Origin: Maritimibacter sp. DP1N21-5
GTDB taxonomy: Bacteria > Pseudomonadota > Alphaproteobacteria > Rhodobacterales > Rhodobacteraceae
NCBI RefSeq assembly: GCF_019218295.1
Contig: NZ_JAHUZF010000006.1
Span: 62,001 to 126,000 of the forward strand
Length of the DNA: 64,000 nt
Direction: 5' to 3'
Part shown: in pieces, positions 40,448-47,254 of the stretch
Numbering within the stretch: the first letter of the stretch is position 1
Layout of the letters: the number at the start of each line of letters is the position of its first letter
The notes under the pieces: generated by a model
Database searches by the model: none
The model's input: only the letters and a program-made list of their open reading frames with translations
Told to the model about the DNA's origin: nothing
Made by a program: the position numbers and the translations under genes

Positions 40448-42097
40448 TTAACGCTGCGCCGTCTCCCACTCCGGATGCACCCAGGGCACGTCATTGCTGC
40501 GCGGCAGGCTACGGCCCAGAATGTGATCCGCCATCTTCTCACCCGTCATGATCGACGGCCCGTTCAGGTTGCCATTGGTGATACGCGGAAAGACCGAACT
40601 GTCCACCACGCGCAAGGCATCGACCCCGATCACACGCCCCTCCGGATCGACAACCGACATCGGATCATCGGCCCGCCCCATCCGGCAGGTCCCGCACGGA
40701 TGATACGCGCTCTCTGCATGTTCGCGGATCACCTCATCCAGCTCATCATCGCTCTGATGCGCATCACCCGGTTGGATCTCATGCTTCACAAACGGCGCAA
40801 ACGCCTCCTGCGCAAAGATCTCGCGCGTGAGCCGGATGCAGGCGCGGAAGTCCTGCCAATCCTGCTCCGTGCTCATGTAGTTGAAGCGGATCACCGGATC
40901 GTCTGCGGGATCCGCCGACCGCAACGTCACAGCACCTCGCGACGGGGACCGCATGGGGCCGACATGCGCTTGAAACCCATGCCCTTCAGCTGGCGCGTAG
41001 CCATCATACCGCACCGCCATGGGCAGGAAGTGATACTGAATGTCCGGATAGGGCACCCCGGCCCTGCTGCGAATGAAAGCCGCGCTCTCGAACTGGTTGG
41101 ACGCGCCCAGACCGGTGCCGGTAAACAGCCACTGCGCCCCGATCATCGCCTTCGAGATCAGGTTCCAGTGCTTGTAGAGCGTGATCGGCTGGCTGGAGGC
41201 ATACTGGATATACATCTCCAGATGGTCCTGCAGGTTCGCGCCCACACCGGGGCGGTCAGCCACCACATCAATCCCATGCTCGGCCAGATGCGCGCCCGAC
41301 CCAATTCCCGACAGCATCAGGATCTTAGGCGAGTTGATGGACGAGGCTGCAAGGATCACCTCCACCCGCGCCTTCACCACCTGTCCCCCGGCCAGAACCA
41401 CGCCCATTGCGCGCCCATCGGTCATCTCGGTCCGCTCGACCAGCCCACGCACCAGATCGCAATTGGGCCGCTTCAGCGCAGGCCTCAGATAGGCATTCGC
41501 CGCCGACCAGCGCCGGCCCTTGTGCACGGTCTGCTCCATGGGGCCAAAGCCTTCCTGCTTCTGCCCGTTATAATCGCCCGTGACCTCATAGCCCGCCTGC
41601 CGCCCCGCATCGACAAACGCCTTGAACAGCGGGTTCCGGCGCGGCCCGCGCGTGACGTGCAAAGGCCCATCGGTGCCGCGCCACGCCGGATCGCCCCCAT
41701 GGCCATTGCCGTCCCAGCTTTCCATCCGCTTGAAGTAAGGCAGCACGTCGGCATAGCCCCAGCCATCCGCGCCACTCTCCGCCCAATGGTCATAGTCCAG
41801 CGCATGGCCCCGCACATAGACCATCCCGTTGATGGACGACGACCCACCCACAACCTTGCCGCGCGGACAGACCAACCGCCGCCCGCCCAGATGCGGCTCA
41901 GGTTCGGACATGTAGCCCCAATCGTAGCGCTTCATGTTCATCGGATAGGACAAGGCCGCAGGCATCTGAATGAACGGCCCCGCATCGGTGCCGCCATGCT
42001 CAATTACCAGCACCGACTTGCCCGCCTCGGCCAGCCTGTAAGCCACGGCGCACCCCGCCGACCCGGCCCCCACAATCACGTAATCCGCTTCCATCAC
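40448..42097 (-). CDS. betA: Choline dehydrogenase
   Basis: The 549-residue GMC oxidoreductase oxidises choline to betaine aldehyde, using FAD. It opens [20 protein letters not shown] (FAD-binding), has [20 protein letters not shown], and the C-terminal active-site region [20 protein letters not shown] and [20 protein letters not shown], whose pattern is diagnostic of BetA. The length is normal. It is last in the bet operon, separated from betB by a 252-bp gap that holds a G-rich hairpin. Confidence 0.95.
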
Positions 42098-42286
42098 TCA
42101 CCTTCCGGTGATTCCGCGAAGGGTCAAGGATGCGCAGCACCGCGCGCAGGCGCGGCTTGTCCTTGAGGCTTCGGGGAATCGCATCTCATCCTTGAAAGGG
42201 TGTCTTGAGGCGCACAAAGCGCCCTCAAGCACCTCTCAGCACACATCCTTCACATATCTCAAACAGCGCAGCATCTGCCCCCTGCC

Positions 42287-42339
42287 CGCCCTTTTTCGGA
42301 GTGCGGGGTGGGTGGGCGGGCGCGCTCCAAAAAAGGGCG
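42287..42339. repeat. 15-bp inverted repeat with a G-quadruplex sequence in its loop
   Basis: CGCCCTTTTTCGGAG (42287-42301) pairs with CTCCAAAAAAGGGCG (42325-42339) with one mismatch. The plus-strand loop contains GGGGTGGGTGGGCGGG (42305-42320), four G-tracts with single-base loops. It lies 11 bp beyond the betB stop, between betB and betA. The bet transcript is read from the minus strand and carries the C-rich version; no T-run follows, so it is not a plain terminator. Confidence 0.85.
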
Positions 42340-42349
42340 TCCCGACCCA

Positions 42350-43801
42350 TCAAAACGGAGCCTCCAGATCGCCCATGCGCACATAAACCGACTTCACCTG
42401 GCTATAATGTTCGATCGCCGCCTTCGAATTCTCGCGCCCCACGCCCGAGGCCTTGACCCCACCAAAGGGCGCTTCAACCGGCGCATCGTTGTAGCTGTTG
42501 ATGAAACAGGTCCCCGCCTCGAACCCGGCGGCCACCCTATGCGCTCGGGTCAGATCGCTTGTGAACACACCTGCGGCCAAGCCAAATTCCGTGTCATTGG
42601 CGCGGGCCATAACGTCGGCCTCGTCTTCGAAATCCAGCACCGCCATCACCGGGCCAAAAATCTCTTCCCGCGCGATGGTCATGTCGTCCGTCACGTCGGC
42701 AAAAACGGTCGGCTCCAGAAAGAACCCGTCCCGCTCCAGCCGCTCGCCCCCGGTCACAAGCCGTGCGCCTTCGTCCTGTCCCTTGGCAATGTAGCCCTGC
42801 ACGATCTCCATCTGCCGTTCGCTGACCATCGGGCCAAAGCTCGTCTCGGGATCCTGCGGATCACCAATCACAGCAGCGCCCAGCCGCTCGGTCAAACGCG
42901 CCAGAAACGCCTCCTTGATCCCCGACTGCACAAAGACGCGGGTCCCATTGGAACAGACCTGCCCTGAGGAATAGAAGTTGCCCAGGATCGCCCCCGACAC
43001 CGCATTCTCAAGATCCGCATCGTCAAAGATGATCAGGGGCGACTTGCCCCCCAACTCCATCGTCACATGCTTCATCTCAGCCGCGGCGGCAGCATAAACC
43101 TTGCGGCCCGTCGGCACCGAACCTGTCAACGACACCTTGTCGACACGCGGGTCCGACACCAGCGCCGCGCCGACATCGCCCAGCCCCTGCACCACGTTAT
43201 AGACACCCGCAGGCGCCCCCGCCTCGTGCAGGATCTCAGCCACTTTTAATGCACAAAGCGGCGTCGTCTCGGACGGCTTGAACACCATCGTGTTGCCGCA
43301 GGCGAGCGCAGGCGCGCTCTTCCAGCAGGCAATCTGGGTCGGGTAGTTCCACGCCCCGATCCCGACGCACACACCCAAAGGCTCACGACGGGTGTAAACC
43401 CAATCCTCACCCAGCGGGATGTGCTCGCCCGTCAAGGTCGCGGCCATACCGCCAAAATACTCCAGCGCATCCGCCCCGCTGGTGGCGTCGACCACGCTTG
43501 TCTCCTGATAGGGCTTGCCGGTGTCATAGGTCTCCAGCACCGACAGATCGTGGTTCCGCTCGCGCAGGATGTCGGCAGCACGGCGCAGGATGCGGCCCCG
43601 CTCCGTACCGGTCATCGCCGCCCACTCCGCCTGCGCTGCCCGCGCGGATGTCAGGGCGTGATCTATCACCGCAGGCGTCGCGGAATACACGCGGCCAATG
43701 ACCTCTCCGGTCGCCGGATAGATCACGTCGATGGGCGTGCCCGCCGTATCTTCCACATAAGCGCCACCAATATAGTGGCTTGCTGTCGGTTGGGTCTGCA
43801 T
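42350..43801 (-). CDS. betB: Betaine aldehyde dehydrogenase
   Basis: The 483-residue enzyme oxidises betaine aldehyde to glycine betaine with NAD(P)+. It shows [57 protein letters not shown] with the general-base Glu, and [14 protein letters not shown] with the catalytic Cys. QSLHTNS-type motifs of other ALDHs are not relevant. The length is that of BetB. Between the BCCT gene and betA in the bet operon. Confidence 0.95.
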
Positions 43802-43858: not shown

Positions 43859-45040
43859 CTATTCTGCGGGGGCCGCGTGCACGCTGCGCAAATCACCCAG
43901 CGTATCGCGGCGGGTCAGCACCCAGGCCAGGCACGCCACATACATCCCGATGACGGCGGTCCCGACCCACTGGATCTGCAACCACTGGCTCTGGAACAGC
44001 AGGGTCAGCACGAACAGCAGTGCGGCGTTGCCCAGCACGTATTGCACCTTGCCGTAGCAGTCGGCGGTCACGTTCAGGTTGTCGGTGTAAAGCCGGATCA
44101 GCGAGTCAAACGAGTTGATGACGAACAGGATGCCCACAACGGTCATCGACCAGTTGACCAGCCCGGTCATATCGATGCTGTTCAGGTGATACCAATAGGC
44201 CACCGTGAACCAGATGCCCAAGGGGATCGACGGAAAGATCAGGAGTGCGGCCAGCAATTGCCATGTCGCCAGCCCGCCCACGAAACGGGACGTGAACTGA
44301 CCGATCATGATCGACCAGGCGAACCACCAGAACAGGTAGAACTCGTGATAATCCGTTAGCGGAATGACGAATTTGTGGATGTTGGCGAAGTAGCCGCCGA
44401 TGTTGCTGCCGGTGGACAGGAACTCGCCAAAGCCCATGCGCGCATTGGCCCACATGCCGATGATCAGGGCAAAGAACACGAGGGTCGACGCGACTGACAG
44501 GATCTTGACGTACTTGATGTCGGTGGACGAATAGCTCGCCGCCAGGATCACCAGAAAACAAATGACATAAAACGCCGGGATCACCGTTTCGCCATCACCC
44601 ACTTCGGGGATGTAATAGGGCATGTAGATCAGGAACAGCGCGCCGGTGAATGCGCAGGTGGTGATGATCACCATGTTGTTGATCAGCTTCACGATGCCGT
44701 TCTCAAAGAATTTCACGCGCGGCTCGATGGCGCAGAAATAGAACGCTGTCAGGAAGTAGAACGCCCAGATCAGAAAGCCCCAGAAGCCAAACTCCAGCGC
44801 CAGCGGGTTGGTAAAGGCATAGGCCGGTTCAGCCGCCGTATCAGCATAGAGCGGAAAGTCAAAGGCGATCGGGAACATGATCAATCCGACATCCAGACCG
44901 GACGTGAACAGGATCGCGATAAAGACAAACAGGCTGACCGGTTGCGGCCCGGTCAGGCGCACGCTCCAGTATTTGATGGTGACGAAGCCGACCAGCACAA
45001 AGGCCAGCAGCACACCGAATGAAAGAATCGTCGTAAGCAT
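43859..45040 (-). CDS. BCCT-like choline/betaine transporter
   Basis: The 393-residue protein has about ten membrane segments. FYLFWWFAWSIMIGQFTSRF resembles the core BCCT motif (WWxxWSxxIGxFxxR) in transporters of quaternary amines. It is shorter than typical BCCT members (500 or more residues) and divergent, so it may be a distinct subgroup. In the bet operon, import of choline or choline-O-sulfate is the simplest role. No C-terminal osmosensory tail is visible. Confidence 0.75.
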   Translation of the reverse strand: MLTTILSFGVLLAFVLVGFVTIKYWSVRLTGPQPVSLFVFIAILFTSGLDVGLIMFPIAFDFPLYADTAAEPAYAFTNPLALEFGFWGFLIWAFYFLTAFYFCAIEPRVKFFENGIVKLINNMVIITTCAFTGALFLIYMPYYIPEVGDGETVIPAFYVICFLVILAASYSSTDIKYVKILSVASTLVFFALIIGMWANARMGFGEFLSTGSNIGGYFANIHKFVIPLTDYHEFYLFWWFAWSIMIGQFTSRFVGGLATWQLLAALLIFPSIPLGIWFTVAYWYHLNSIDMTGLVNWSMTVVGILFVINSFDSLIRLYTDNLNVTADCYGKVQYVLGNAALLFVLTLLFQSQWLQIQWVGTAVIGMYVACLAWVLTRRDTLGDLRSVHAAPAE

Positions 45041-45128: not shown

Positions 45129-46637
45129 TTATTCTTCGCGGGGAAACCGCTGATTTTCCTCTAGAACATTCAAATCCATGTGATTGCGCATGTAGCGCTC
45201 CGATGCCTTCTGCAGCGGCTGGTAGTCCCAGGGGTAGTACCCACCTTGCCGCAAAGCCTCGTACACCACCCAGCGCCGCGCCTGAGATGCGCGCACGTCG
45301 GCGTCAAAACGCTCAAGATCCCAACGCGCCGCCGCTTTCGCTTGCAGTTGCATAAGCGTGCCCTGATGCGCAGGCACATCCGCAAGGTTCGTCAGCTCAT
45401 GCGGGTCGGCCTCAAGATCGAAAAGCTGATCGGGATCCAGCGCACAGCGGTTGTACTTCCACTTGCCATAGCGCAGCGACACCATGGGCGCGTAAGACGC
45501 CTCGGCCGCATATTCCATCGCCACTGGCTCCGTGCGCTCGACGCCTTGCCCCTGCGGCACCAGCGACTGACCGGTGGTCCACGGCATCACCTCGGACATG
45601 TCCACACCCGCCAGATCACAGAGCGTCGGGCACACATCGATATTGCTCACGGGGTCAGTTACCAGACCCGGCTCCATCGACGGGGCCGCAATCATCAACG
45701 GCACTCGCGACGCCCCCTCATAGAAGGACATCTTGAACCACAGCCCCCGCGCGCCCAGCATGTCGCCATGGTCGGACACGAAGAGGATAACCGCCTCCTG
45801 CCGGGTGCCTTCCAGCGCCTCCAGCACCTCCCCGATCTTGTCATCGAGATAGGAGATATTGGCGAAATACGCCCGCCGCGACCGGCGGATATCCTCATCC
45901 GATATGGTGAAGTTGTCGCGGTCGTTGGCGTCCAGAATACGCTGCGAATGCGGGTCCTGATCCTCATAGGGGATCGGCCCCACCTCCGGCATCAGGTGGT
46001 CGCAATCCTCGTAGAGATCCCAATACTTCTTCCGCGCCACATATGGATCATGCGGATGCGTGAAGCTGACGGTCAGGCACCAGGGCCGCGGATCATGCCC
46101 GCGCCCCAGATCATAGATTTTGCGCGTCGCGTGATAGGCGACCTCGTCATCGAACTCGAGCTGGTTGGTGATCTCCGCCACACCCGCGCCAGTGACGGAC
46201 CCCATATTGTGATACCACCAGTCAATCCGCTCGCCAGGCTTGCGGTAATCCGGCGTCCACCCGAAATCCGGCGGGTAAACGTCGGTGGTCAACCGCTCCT
46301 CAAAGCCATGCAACTGATCGGGGCCTACAAAGTGCATCTTGCCTGACAGACAGGTCTGATAGCCCGCCCGGCGCAGGTGATGTGCATAGGTAGGGATCGA
46401 CGACGGAAACTCGGCCGCATTGTCATAGACACCCGTGGCACTGGGCAACTGCCCCGACATAAAGCCCGCCCGCCCCGGCGCGCACAGGGGCGAGGCAGTG
46501 TAAGCGTTGCGAAACCGGGTCGACCGCGCCGCCAGCTTTTTCAGATTCGGTGCGTGCAGCCACTCAGCAGGACCATCGGGAAACAGCGTCCCGTTCAACT
46601 GATCCACCATGAAAATCAGGATGTTGGGCCGCGTCAT
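45129..46637 (-). CDS. betC: Choline sulfatase
   Basis: The 502-residue sulfatase releases choline from choline-O-sulfate. TASPLCAPGRAGFMSGQLPS holds the C-x-P-x-R motif; Cys52 is expected to become formylglycine. PNILIFMVDQLNGTLFPDG at the start has metal-binding Asp, and LFVSDHGDMLGARGLWFKMS supplies the Asp-His of the metal site. The C-terminal YEALRQGGYYPWDYQPLQKA is typical of BetC. The ATG overlaps the betI stop (ATGA). Confidence 0.94.
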   Translation of the reverse strand: MTRPNILIFMVDQLNGTLFPDGPAEWLHAPNLKKLAARSTRFRNAYTASPLCAPGRAGFMSGQLPSATGVYDNAAEFPSSIPTYAHHLRRAGYQTCLSGKMHFVGPDQLHGFEERLTTDVYPPDFGWTPDYRKPGERIDWWYHNMGSVTGAGVAEITNQLEFDDEVAYHATRKIYDLGRGHDPRPWCLTVSFTHPHDPYVARKKYWDLYEDCDHLMPEVGPIPYEDQDPHSQRILDANDRDNFTISDEDIRRSRRAYFANISYLDDKIGEVLEALEGTRQEAVILFVSDHGDMLGARGLWFKMSFYEGASRVPLMIAAPSMEPGLVTDPVSNIDVCPTLCDLAGVDMSEVMPWTTGQSLVPQGQGVERTEPVAMEYAAEASYAPMVSLRYGKWKYNRCALDPDQLFDLEADPHELTNLADVPAHQGTLMQLQAKAAARWDLERFDADVRASQARRWVVYEALRQGGYYPWDYQPLQKASERYMRNHMDLNVLEENQRFPREE

Positions 46638-47209
46638 TGATAGGCCCCCGTCAAGGTATCCAGCGCACGCAGCGCGGTCGCTTGTGCCACATCGCGCGAT
46701 GCATCCTTGGAGAGAGCTGCTCGCAGATAAAGTCCGTCGATCAGCGCCCCCAGCATTTCGGCATCCCCACGCGGATCACTGCTGATCCCGCGCAGCGCAT
46801 GGGTCAGGTTCGACCGCAATCGGCGCTGGTACAGCTCAAGCAAACGGTGCGTTTCGGGATGGGTCGTCGCCTGCGCGTAAAGCGTCATCCACGCGCCAAC
46901 GGTCGCAGGCGCAAAGCTCGAGGGTGCAAAACTGGCCGCGATCAATGCCTCGGCCCGCTTCCGCGGCGTCCGCGCGCCGCGCAGCCCGACGACAACCTCC
47001 TTGCGAAAATCAAGCAGGATCTGCCCCATCGCCGCCAGGAAAATCTGATGCTTGCCGCCGAAATAGTGATGCGCCAGCGCGGTCGACATGCCCGCCCGCT
47101 TGGCGATCTGGCCCACGGTCACATCAAGCGATCCGGCCTCGCCAATCTCGGCAATCGTCGCCTCGACCAATGCCGCCCGACGGATCGGTTCCATCCCCAG
47201 TTTCGGCAC
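46634..47209 (-). CDS. betI: TetR-family repressor BetI
   Basis: The 191-residue repressor controls the bet operon and responds to choline. It opens VPKLGMEPIRRAALVEATIA, the usual BetI start, and its helix-turn-helix is TVGQIAKRAGMSTALAHHYF. I chose the GTG at 47209 because AAAGGGG is 6 nt upstream; the ATG at 47215 would lie directly against that SD. First gene of the operon; the palindrome at 47255-47268 is its likely operator. Confidence 0.92.
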   Translation of the reverse strand: MPKLGMEPIRRAALVEATIAEIGEAGSLDVTVGQIAKRAGMSTALAHHYFGGKHQIFLAAMGQILLDFRKEVVVGLRGARTPRKRAEALIAASFAPSSFAPATVGAWMTLYAQATTHPETHRLLELYQRRLRSNLTHALRGISSDPRGDAEMLGALIDGLYLRAALSKDASRDVAQATALRALDTLTGAYQ

Positions 47210-47254
47210 GCGCATCCCCTTTCGCAAAGATGCGGCGCAAGGTGCCGGTTTTTT

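What the first reader, a model, noticed from the sequence alone, without database searches (positions are those of the whole stretch)
42287..42339. G-quadruplex sequence inside a 15-bp hairpin between betB and betA
GGGGTGGGTGGGCGGG has four G3+ tracts with one-base loops, the most stable G4 type, and it is exposed in the loop of a near-perfect inverted repeat. It lies on the template strand of the bet operon, just after betB. It could cause transcription pausing or set betB:betA ratios, perhaps in a K+ or osmolarity-sensitive way; since bet genes serve osmoprotection, a salt-sensitive DNA switch is an attractive hypothesis.
Basis: partly seen in the sequence, partly recalled or inferred. Interest (0 to 1): 0.7.

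Follow-up and report, generated by a model that had tools for sequence, protein, structure and literature searches.

The report
Quadruplex-loop hairpin family in roseobacters
The stretch after betB is one copy of a family of DNA hairpins whose loop spells a very stable four-stranded G-quadruplex; the family is scattered through one bacterial family, often just behind genes, and its sequence pattern suggests that the G-rich strand is what is kept folded.

Summary
42287-42339 is a 19-bp inverted repeat (one mismatch) around exactly 15 nt, GGGTGGGTGGGCGGG, on the bet template strand, 10 nt after the betB stop. It is single-copy in its genome, but 17 of 75 bet loci carry such a hairpin between betB and betA. 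There the stem changes by compensation (15 of 17 pairs) while the C3N1 loop stays. A covariance model finds relatives in 55 of 248 family genomes, own included, often just after a stop codon. In G101, G271 and G127 the sampled hairpins keep one orientation per contig; G025, G068 and G246 fit poorly.
Stem mismatches are mostly those tolerable on the G-rich strand (63 C.A versus 16 G.T; control hairpins lean the other way). A hold-out repeated this for Y.Y versus R.R (33 versus 3); C.A versus G.T was 16 versus 9, not significant.
Best reading: a polar element folding on the G-strand, silent to sense transcription, opposing antisense transcription. This is inference (0.38). The salt-switch idea is not supported: this quadruplex type melts at 75 C in 1 mM K+ (PMC4880955, passages), and the family also sits beside non-osmotic genes.

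The parts
42287..42339 (-). Element A: quadruplex-loop hairpin, 19-bp stem, 15-nt loop; read 5'-3' on the bet mRNA strand (C-rich loop)
   Evidence: CM R1 hit 42289-42337 minus, E 6.9e-17, only significant locus in the genome (the same site on the other strand E 1e-5, next locus E 0.3)
42305..42320 (+). G-rich loop strand GGGGTGGGTGGGCGGG (four G3+ tracts, one-base pyrimidine loops), on the template strand of bet
42321..42339 (-). 5' arm of the hairpin in mRNA sense
42287..42305 (-). 3' arm of the hairpin in mRNA sense
42350..43801 (-). betB, betaine-aldehyde dehydrogenase; stop codon 10 nt before element A
40448..42094 (-). betA, choline dehydrogenase (ATG at 42094)
42108..42240 (-). Element B: second conserved, strongly covarying element, ending just before the betA start region; no Rfam match above threshold
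43859..45040 (-). divergent BCCT-like membrane protein of the bet operon (weak match only)
45129..46637 (-). betC, choline-sulfatase
46634..47227 (-). betI, repressor

Best explanation
SHOWN: the element belongs to a family, found here only in the window's bacterial family, of extragenic hairpins with a nearly perfectly paired distal stem, a looser loop-side stem (about 8 bp) and a 15-nt loop of the type (C3R)3C3 on one strand, i.e. (G3Y)3G3 on the other. The G-rich strand is mostly the template strand of the gene that ends before it. In three sampled genomes copies keep one orientation per contig with positive GC skew on the C-strand, i.e. the G-strand would be the leading-strand template. 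Stem mismatches are biased to those that the G-strand tolerates. INFERRED: the functional fold is a quadruplex-capped hairpin of the G-rich strand, as displaced DNA and/or as antisense RNA. Sense RNA polymerase, and the replicative helicase on the lagging template, do not provoke it. When the region is transcribed backwards the G-strand is displaced and the RNA is G-rich, the hairpin-quadruplex forms, and it stops that polymerase and its followers. It would thus be a one-way barrier protecting the 3' end of a gene from antisense or head-on transcription, while sense transcription passes; this suits its place inside operons such as betB-betA.
For: Covariation: 93.8% of cells paired, 15 of 17 pairs changed on both sides, score 0.625 vs 0.211 in shuffles. 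Loop: four intact CCC tracts in 13 of 17 bet hairpins; spacers purine in 296 of 303 loop positions of the first sets without G025 and 104 of 105 in the hold-out. (Apart these sets were chosen by the exact motif, so tract integrity there is by selection; spacer bases are not.) Strand signature: C.A 63 vs G.T 16 on the C-strand (P 9e-8; 61 vs 15 over 112 hairpins after removing repeats between sets); control hairpins of the same windows G.T 274 vs C.A 182, Fisher P 4e-11. Beyond the loop-closing pair, without G025: Y.Y 38 vs R.R 10; control 143 vs 201. Hold-out Y.Y 33 vs R.R 3, P 2e-7. Polarity: in G101 all 47 motif starts have one orientation per contig; at the 46 fetched sites C-strand GC skew is positive at 44 and the upstream gene lies on the C-strand at 41, although only 68 of 150 other genes in those windows do. 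G271: upstream gene on the C-strand 11 of 11 hairpins, skew 9 of 11; G127: 9 of 9 and 9 of 9. Hold-out: upstream gene 24 of 35 vs 39 of 83 other genes (P 0.008), skew 26 of 35 (P 0.006). Position: stop codon within -15 to 25 nt at 28 of 46 in G101, 10 of 11 in G271, 6 of 9 in G127, 15 of 35 in the hold-out. Four or more T in the 8 nt after the stem in only 11 of 105 hairpins in C-strand sense and 4 of 105 in G-strand sense. Published: (G3T) repeats form a quadruplex on in-vitro transcription only when the RNA is G-rich (PMC7023247, passages).
Against: No transcription, footprinting or folding data; antisense transcription at any of these sites is assumed. Hold-out C.A vs G.T was 16 vs 9, not significant (P 0.23; in pairs 2-8 it is 12 vs 1, a split not among the noted predictions). 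G246: 0 of 9 motif sites in such a hairpin; G117 2 of 7; G068: skew positive at only 6 of 11, stop nearby at 3 of 11. G025: 8 of 20 fetched sites pass the stem score, 4 of 8 upstream genes on the C-strand, 1 of 8 next to a stop, and its arms look like a true repeat. In L210 both called neighbours lie on the other strand, so the loop would be G-rich in their mRNA. The mismatch bias could also reflect selection for a purine-rich G-strand rather than its folding. PMC7023247 (passages) reports little leading/lagging asymmetry for (G3T)n, so the replication part rests on the genome pattern alone. Clustering at 70% identity leaves 21 groups, 12 leaning to C.A and 2 to G.T (P 0.013), a weaker test. 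58 of 75 bet loci do without it.
Confidence: 0.38

Rival explanations
1. Template-strand roadblock: the quadruplex hairpin forms on the template strand and pauses or stops sense RNA polymerase behind betB, lowering betA.
For: G-strand is the template of the upstream gene at most sites; place after stops; strand signature favours the G-strand. A quadruplex sequence in the template strand lowered RNA output in vitro on linear DNA (PMC11982182, passages).
Against: It sits inside operons with the next start codon 2-4 nt after the hairpin in L205, L213, L220 and 22-45 nt after the loop in five loci, where a block would silence the next gene; transcription giving C-rich RNA did not form the quadruplex (PMC7023247, passages).
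Confidence: 0.22
2. mRNA element: the sense RNA hairpin with a C-rich loop guards the 3' end of the upstream message or attenuates read-through, perhaps through a C-tract binding protein.
For: Stable sense hairpins (-23 to -42 kcal/mol over 15 bet copies), place after stops, compensatory stem.
Against: Sense strand carries the worse mismatches; 3-1-3-1-3-1-3 spacing with purine spacers; few U-tracts; orientation per contig stricter than gene orientation in G101; fold energy with flanks not unusual.
Confidence: 0.2
3. Chromosome-level polar element (supercoil sink, replication or segregation landmark) rather than a transcription element.
For: One orientation per contig in G101, G271, G127, including 5 sites in G101 whose called upstream gene is on the other strand.
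Against: Many genomes, the window's included, show a single hit; tie to stop codons.
Confidence: 0.12
4. Neutral or selfish repeat kept by chance, orientation set only by which orientation is less prone to deletion.
For: Patchy: 58 of 75 bet loci lack it; G025 copies share arms like a mobile repeat.
Against: Unrelated stems with compensatory changes and one conserved loop are not what copying or decay gives.
Confidence: 0.08

Closest known systems
G-quadruplex motifs in bacterial regulatory regions, e.g. nasT of Paracoccus denitrificans (PMC5123632, passages read)
   Same: G3+ tracts on DNA in a Rhodobacterales genome next to a nitrogen-metabolism gene
   Different: nasT motif has longer loops, lies 150 nt upstream of the gene, and no hairpin is described in the passages read
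Intrinsic (Rho-independent) terminators
   Same: GC-rich hairpin soon after a stop codon
   Different: U-tract mostly absent, 15-nt loop with a fixed pattern, sits inside operons
REP / palindromic extragenic repeats (PMC3733652, abstract start in search listing only)
   Same: Extragenic hairpins, many copies in some genomes
   Different: Stem sequence not conserved, loop is; a single hit in many genomes
Quadruplex-duplex hybrids studied in vitro (PMC7544226, PMC8984947; search listing only)
   Same: Quadruplex joined to a duplex hairpin
   Different: There the hairpin sits in a bulge or loop of the quadruplex; here the quadruplex sequence is the loop of the hairpin

Membership tests
Canonical G-quadruplex-forming sequence | Four G3+ tracts with loops of 1-7 nt | tested here: met
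   42305-42320
Canonical G-quadruplex-forming sequence | Folds as quadruplex in K+ | not testable with these tools
   needs CD/NMR/DMS; close relative GGGTGGGTGGGTGGG does (PMC4880955, passages)
Intrinsic terminator | GC-rich hairpin | tested here: met
Intrinsic terminator | U-tract directly after the stem | tested here: not met
   0 of 13 bet copies have 4 or more T in the 8 nt after the stem in either direction; over all sets 11 of 105 and 4 of 105. The consensus scan cannot see 15-nt loops; it lists a weak site at 42357-42338 whose T-run is the 5' arm of this hairpin
REP-type repeat | Conserved stem sequence in many copies in the genome | tested here: not met
   one significant locus in own genome (whole-gap BLAST); stems differ between loci, apart from a sub-group of near-identical copies in G101 and the G025 copies
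Rfam RNA families | Match to a curated covariance model | tested here: not met
   only a sub-threshold CRISPR-DR28 match elsewhere in the gap, E 0.93
C-rich-loop RNAs of Rhodobacter with CCUCCUCCC (recalled) | CCUCCUCCC loop motif | tested here: not met
   loop is CCCGCCCACCCACCC

The most novel reading that the evidence does not exclude
A class of genomic element for which the paper searches listed under Tried and rejected gave no description: quadruplex-capped hairpins that act as one-way transcription insulators, kept in register with both gene direction and replication direction in Rhodobacteraceae, and selected for the fold of the G-rich strand.
Probability: 0.33. Interest if true: 0.88.

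Novelty: new variant of a known kind. Interest (0 to 1): 0.66.

Why it matters
It would also offer a polar genetic part that is silent one way and active the other.

Tried and rejected
Salt or K+ switch of betB:betA: rejected on stability of this quadruplex type and on gene context. Intrinsic terminator: rejected, U-tract mostly absent. Dispersed repeat in the own genome: rejected. Plasmid copy: no match (records near the window's genome may be left out there). Known RNA family: none. Chance: rejected. Not conserved: the first look at 23 loci found it only in the own genome, which would have led to the wrong verdict; the named-genome scan reversed it. The ten paper searches (open-access PMC only, several lists cut at 8-20 rows) listed no paper whose title or abstract start describes such a family; only passages of PMC5424462, PMC5123632, PMC4666352, PMC4880955, PMC11982182 and PMC7023247 were read.

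Sites fetched: G101 46 sites (47 of 47 motif starts); G271 13 of 17, G127 10 of 26, G025 20 of 39 motif sites counted; G269 11 of 14 model hits. The covariance-model searches scored at most 24, 16 and 15 candidates per genome, so copy numbers are lower bounds. Replication direction is inferred from contig unanimity and local GC skew; no origin was mapped.

Full report
WHAT IS THERE. On the minus strand the window holds betI, betC, a divergent BCCT-like gene, betB and betA. Between the betB stop (42350) and the betA ATG (42094) lie 255 nt. Ten nt after the stop comes the inverted repeat 42287-42305 / 42321-42339 with a 15-nt loop. On the + (template) strand the loop is GGGTGGGTGGGCGGG, preceded by one more G. 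The motif GGGHGGGHGGGHGGG is expected 0.02 times in the window and is found once in the genome.

IS IT CONSERVED? Among the first 23 loci (own included) three or more C3N1 tracts within 400 nt after betB occur only in the own genome; the 20 others with betA downstream have gaps of 0-172 nt. A scan of named genomes gave 80 bet loci; in the closest, Tateyamaria omphalii DP5N21-5, BetB is 100% identical. Of 75 with betA downstream, 17 have a C-loop hairpin with a 15-nt loop between the two genes, 13 of them with four intact tracts, in Tateyamaria, Leisingera, Phaeobacter, Pseudophaeobacter, Thiosulfatihalobacter and others. One further case, L132 (Shimia haliotis), has a C-rich loop with two tracts broken. 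The stems differ strongly (CGCCCTTTTT.. in Tateyamaria, TTGCCCTTTGGG.. in L135). In the 16-sequence ungapped alignment A2, 15 of 17 pairs show changes on both sides and 93.8% of cells are paired; covariation score 0.625 against 0.211 in shuffles and at most 0.185 when the partner is slid. Two near relatives have one broken tract (L070 first, L072 last), so a perfect four-tract loop is not absolute.

A FAMILY. Covariance model R1 finds one locus in the own genome (E 6.9e-17; next locus 0.3), hits in 55 of 248 genomes of the bacterial family (own included) at E 1e-3, and in 2 of 385 genomes of the class at E 1e-4, both in the window's own family. Counts per genome run from 1 to 22, lower bounds because few candidates were scored per genome. 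In 22 of 27 best-hit loci the longest nearby open frame is on the C-strand and stops within -3 to 32 nt of the hairpin, taking arms of 20 nt. Upstream genes identified by profile: betaine-aldehyde dehydrogenase (L219), M20 hydrolase (L205, followed by agmatinase), a BCCT-like gene (L217), asparaginase II (L200, L202), an Lrp-type regulator (L212), a cupin-HTH regulator (L223), an alpha/beta hydrolase (L221), a D-amino-acid transaminase (L201). Others are judged from their ends only: betB before betA (L195-L197, L203, L206), betC (L199, L207), agmatinase starts (L198, L213-L215, L220). The next start codon can be 2-4 nt after the hairpin.

POLARITY. In G101, 47 motif starts all point one way on each contig: C1 18, C7 15 forward; C8 3, C9 10, C10 1 reverse. 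I fetched all 46 sites. 38 of 47 motif starts have a strong 15-nt-loop stem. GC skew on the C-loop strand is positive at 44 of 46. The gene before the element lies on the C-strand at 41 of 46, with its stop within -15 to 25 nt at 28 of 46, although other genes in these windows lie 68 to 82 on the two strands. G271 and G127 behave alike (11 of 11 and 9 of 9 upstream genes on the C-strand; skew 9 of 11 and 9 of 9; one orientation per contig). In G269, 8 of 11 fetched sites have positive skew. G025 does not fit well: 8 of 20 fetched sites pass the stem score, 4 of 8 upstream genes on the C-strand, 1 of 8 at a stop, though the listed motif sites are mostly one-way per contig (8 to 1, 1 to 4, 1 to 20).

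WHICH STRAND FOLDS? A pair that is G.T on one strand is C.A on the other, so the commoner kind tells which strand's fold is kept. Over seven sets (117 hairpins, a few shared between sets), C.A on the C-strand (= G.T on the G-strand) 63, G.T 16 (P 9e-8), all seven sets leaning the same way; with repeats between sets and the window removed, 61 to 15 over 112 hairpins. 260 other hairpins of the G101, G271, G127 and G269 windows lean the other way, 274 G.T to 182 C.A (Fisher P 4e-11). Pyrimidine-pyrimidine mismatches on the C-strand (purine-purine on the G-strand) outnumber the reverse 38 to 10, the loop-closing pair and G025 left out; control 143 to 201. The mismatches sit mostly in the 8 loop-side pairs; pairs 11-18 are 98-100% Watson-Crick, partly because the stem is cut where pairing fails. 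The sets share ancestry: after clustering, 12 groups lean to C.A and 2 to G.T (P 0.013). The bias of leading strands towards C>T and A>G (recalled) would give the opposite lean.

HOLD-OUT. Predictions were noted before fetching; 60 regions of seven genomes were then taken. Four of them (L222, L210, L211, and L401, the same site as L214) had been in the earlier best-hit set. 35 regions have the hairpin; G246 had none in 9 regions and G117 2 in 7. Spacers purine 104 of 105; Y.Y 33 vs R.R 3 (P 2e-7); upstream gene on the C-strand 24 of 35 against 39 of 83 other genes (P 0.008); stop within -15 to 25 nt 15 of 35; skew positive 26 of 35 (P 0.006). C.A vs G.T 16 vs 9 is in the predicted direction but not significant (P 0.23); in pairs 2-8 it is 12 vs 1, a split chosen and not among the noted predictions.

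HOW IT MAY WORK. PMC4880955 (passages) gives 75 C melting in 1 mM K+ for GGGTGGGTGGGTGGG and calls this fold the most stable motif. PMC7023247 (passages) reports that (G3T) repeats in plasmids form a quadruplex on in-vitro transcription only when the RNA is G-rich, and that in E. coli the (G3T)8 repeat is about 350 times less mutable in the other orientation. Our element has the G-strand as template: sense transcription should leave it unfolded, antisense transcription should fold it, and its antisense RNA would itself be a quadruplex-capped hairpin (ViennaRNA with its quadruplex term -67 versus -31 kcal/mol without, a model value). Hence the one-way barrier reading. That DnaB runs on the lagging template, and so would not meet a quadruplex on the leading template, is recalled knowledge offered as a reason for the polarity. 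The template-roadblock and mRNA readings remain open.

SECOND ELEMENT. 42108-42240 (minus) is a separate element. 51 matches aligned to model R2 give 30 of 35 pairs with changes on both sides (that alignment is fitted to the model). It has hits in 34 of 198 genomes of the family (own included), 16 (the number scored) in each of G011, G022 and G081. Of 29 loci looked at, 8 follow a BetB-like end and in 10 its 3' edge lies -4 to 22 nt from the end of a called gene on the other strand. In G129 elements A and B occur as a pair twice on one contig, 49 and 51 nt apart, as in the window (48 nt between the model hits).

Noticed in passing
window 42108-42240, minus strand: Element B, about 133 nt, strongly covarying two-domain fold ending just before the betA start region; hits in 34 of 198 family genomes, at least 16 in three of them; no Rfam match above threshold. 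Function unknown; could be a cis-regulatory RNA or a dispersed structured repeat.
   Followed up: partly
G129:C28 5286-5511 and 7648-7873: Elements A and B occur as a pair twice on one contig with about 50 nt spacing; the first follows a BetC-like end (L199), the second a BetB-like end (L288).
   Followed up: partly
window 43859-45040, minus strand: A 393-aa membrane protein in the bet operon matches BCCT transporters only weakly (NCBIfam E 6e-5, below cut-off; no Pfam match at 1e-5); a protein of similar place in L217 matches PF02028 at 1.7e-7.
   Followed up: partly
G000:C6:265516-266958 (outside the window): A second BetB-like copy, 76% identical, in the same genome.
   Followed up: no
G000:C2:238792-238900 and from C6:208507 (outside the window): Long poly-G runs, the first ending exactly at a contig end; probably assembly artefacts.
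   Followed up: no
L018, L020, L021, gap between betB and betA: Other relatives carry a different C/G-run element with a GTATTT core in the same gap (reverse orientation in L018); I recall it as a common Rhodobacterales intergenic motif.
   Followed up: no
G025 sites (L314-L333): Here the motif lies in a repeat with shared arms (gcct ... cggcgcgcc) and mostly not at stop codons: possibly a mobile offshoot of the family.
   Followed up: partly
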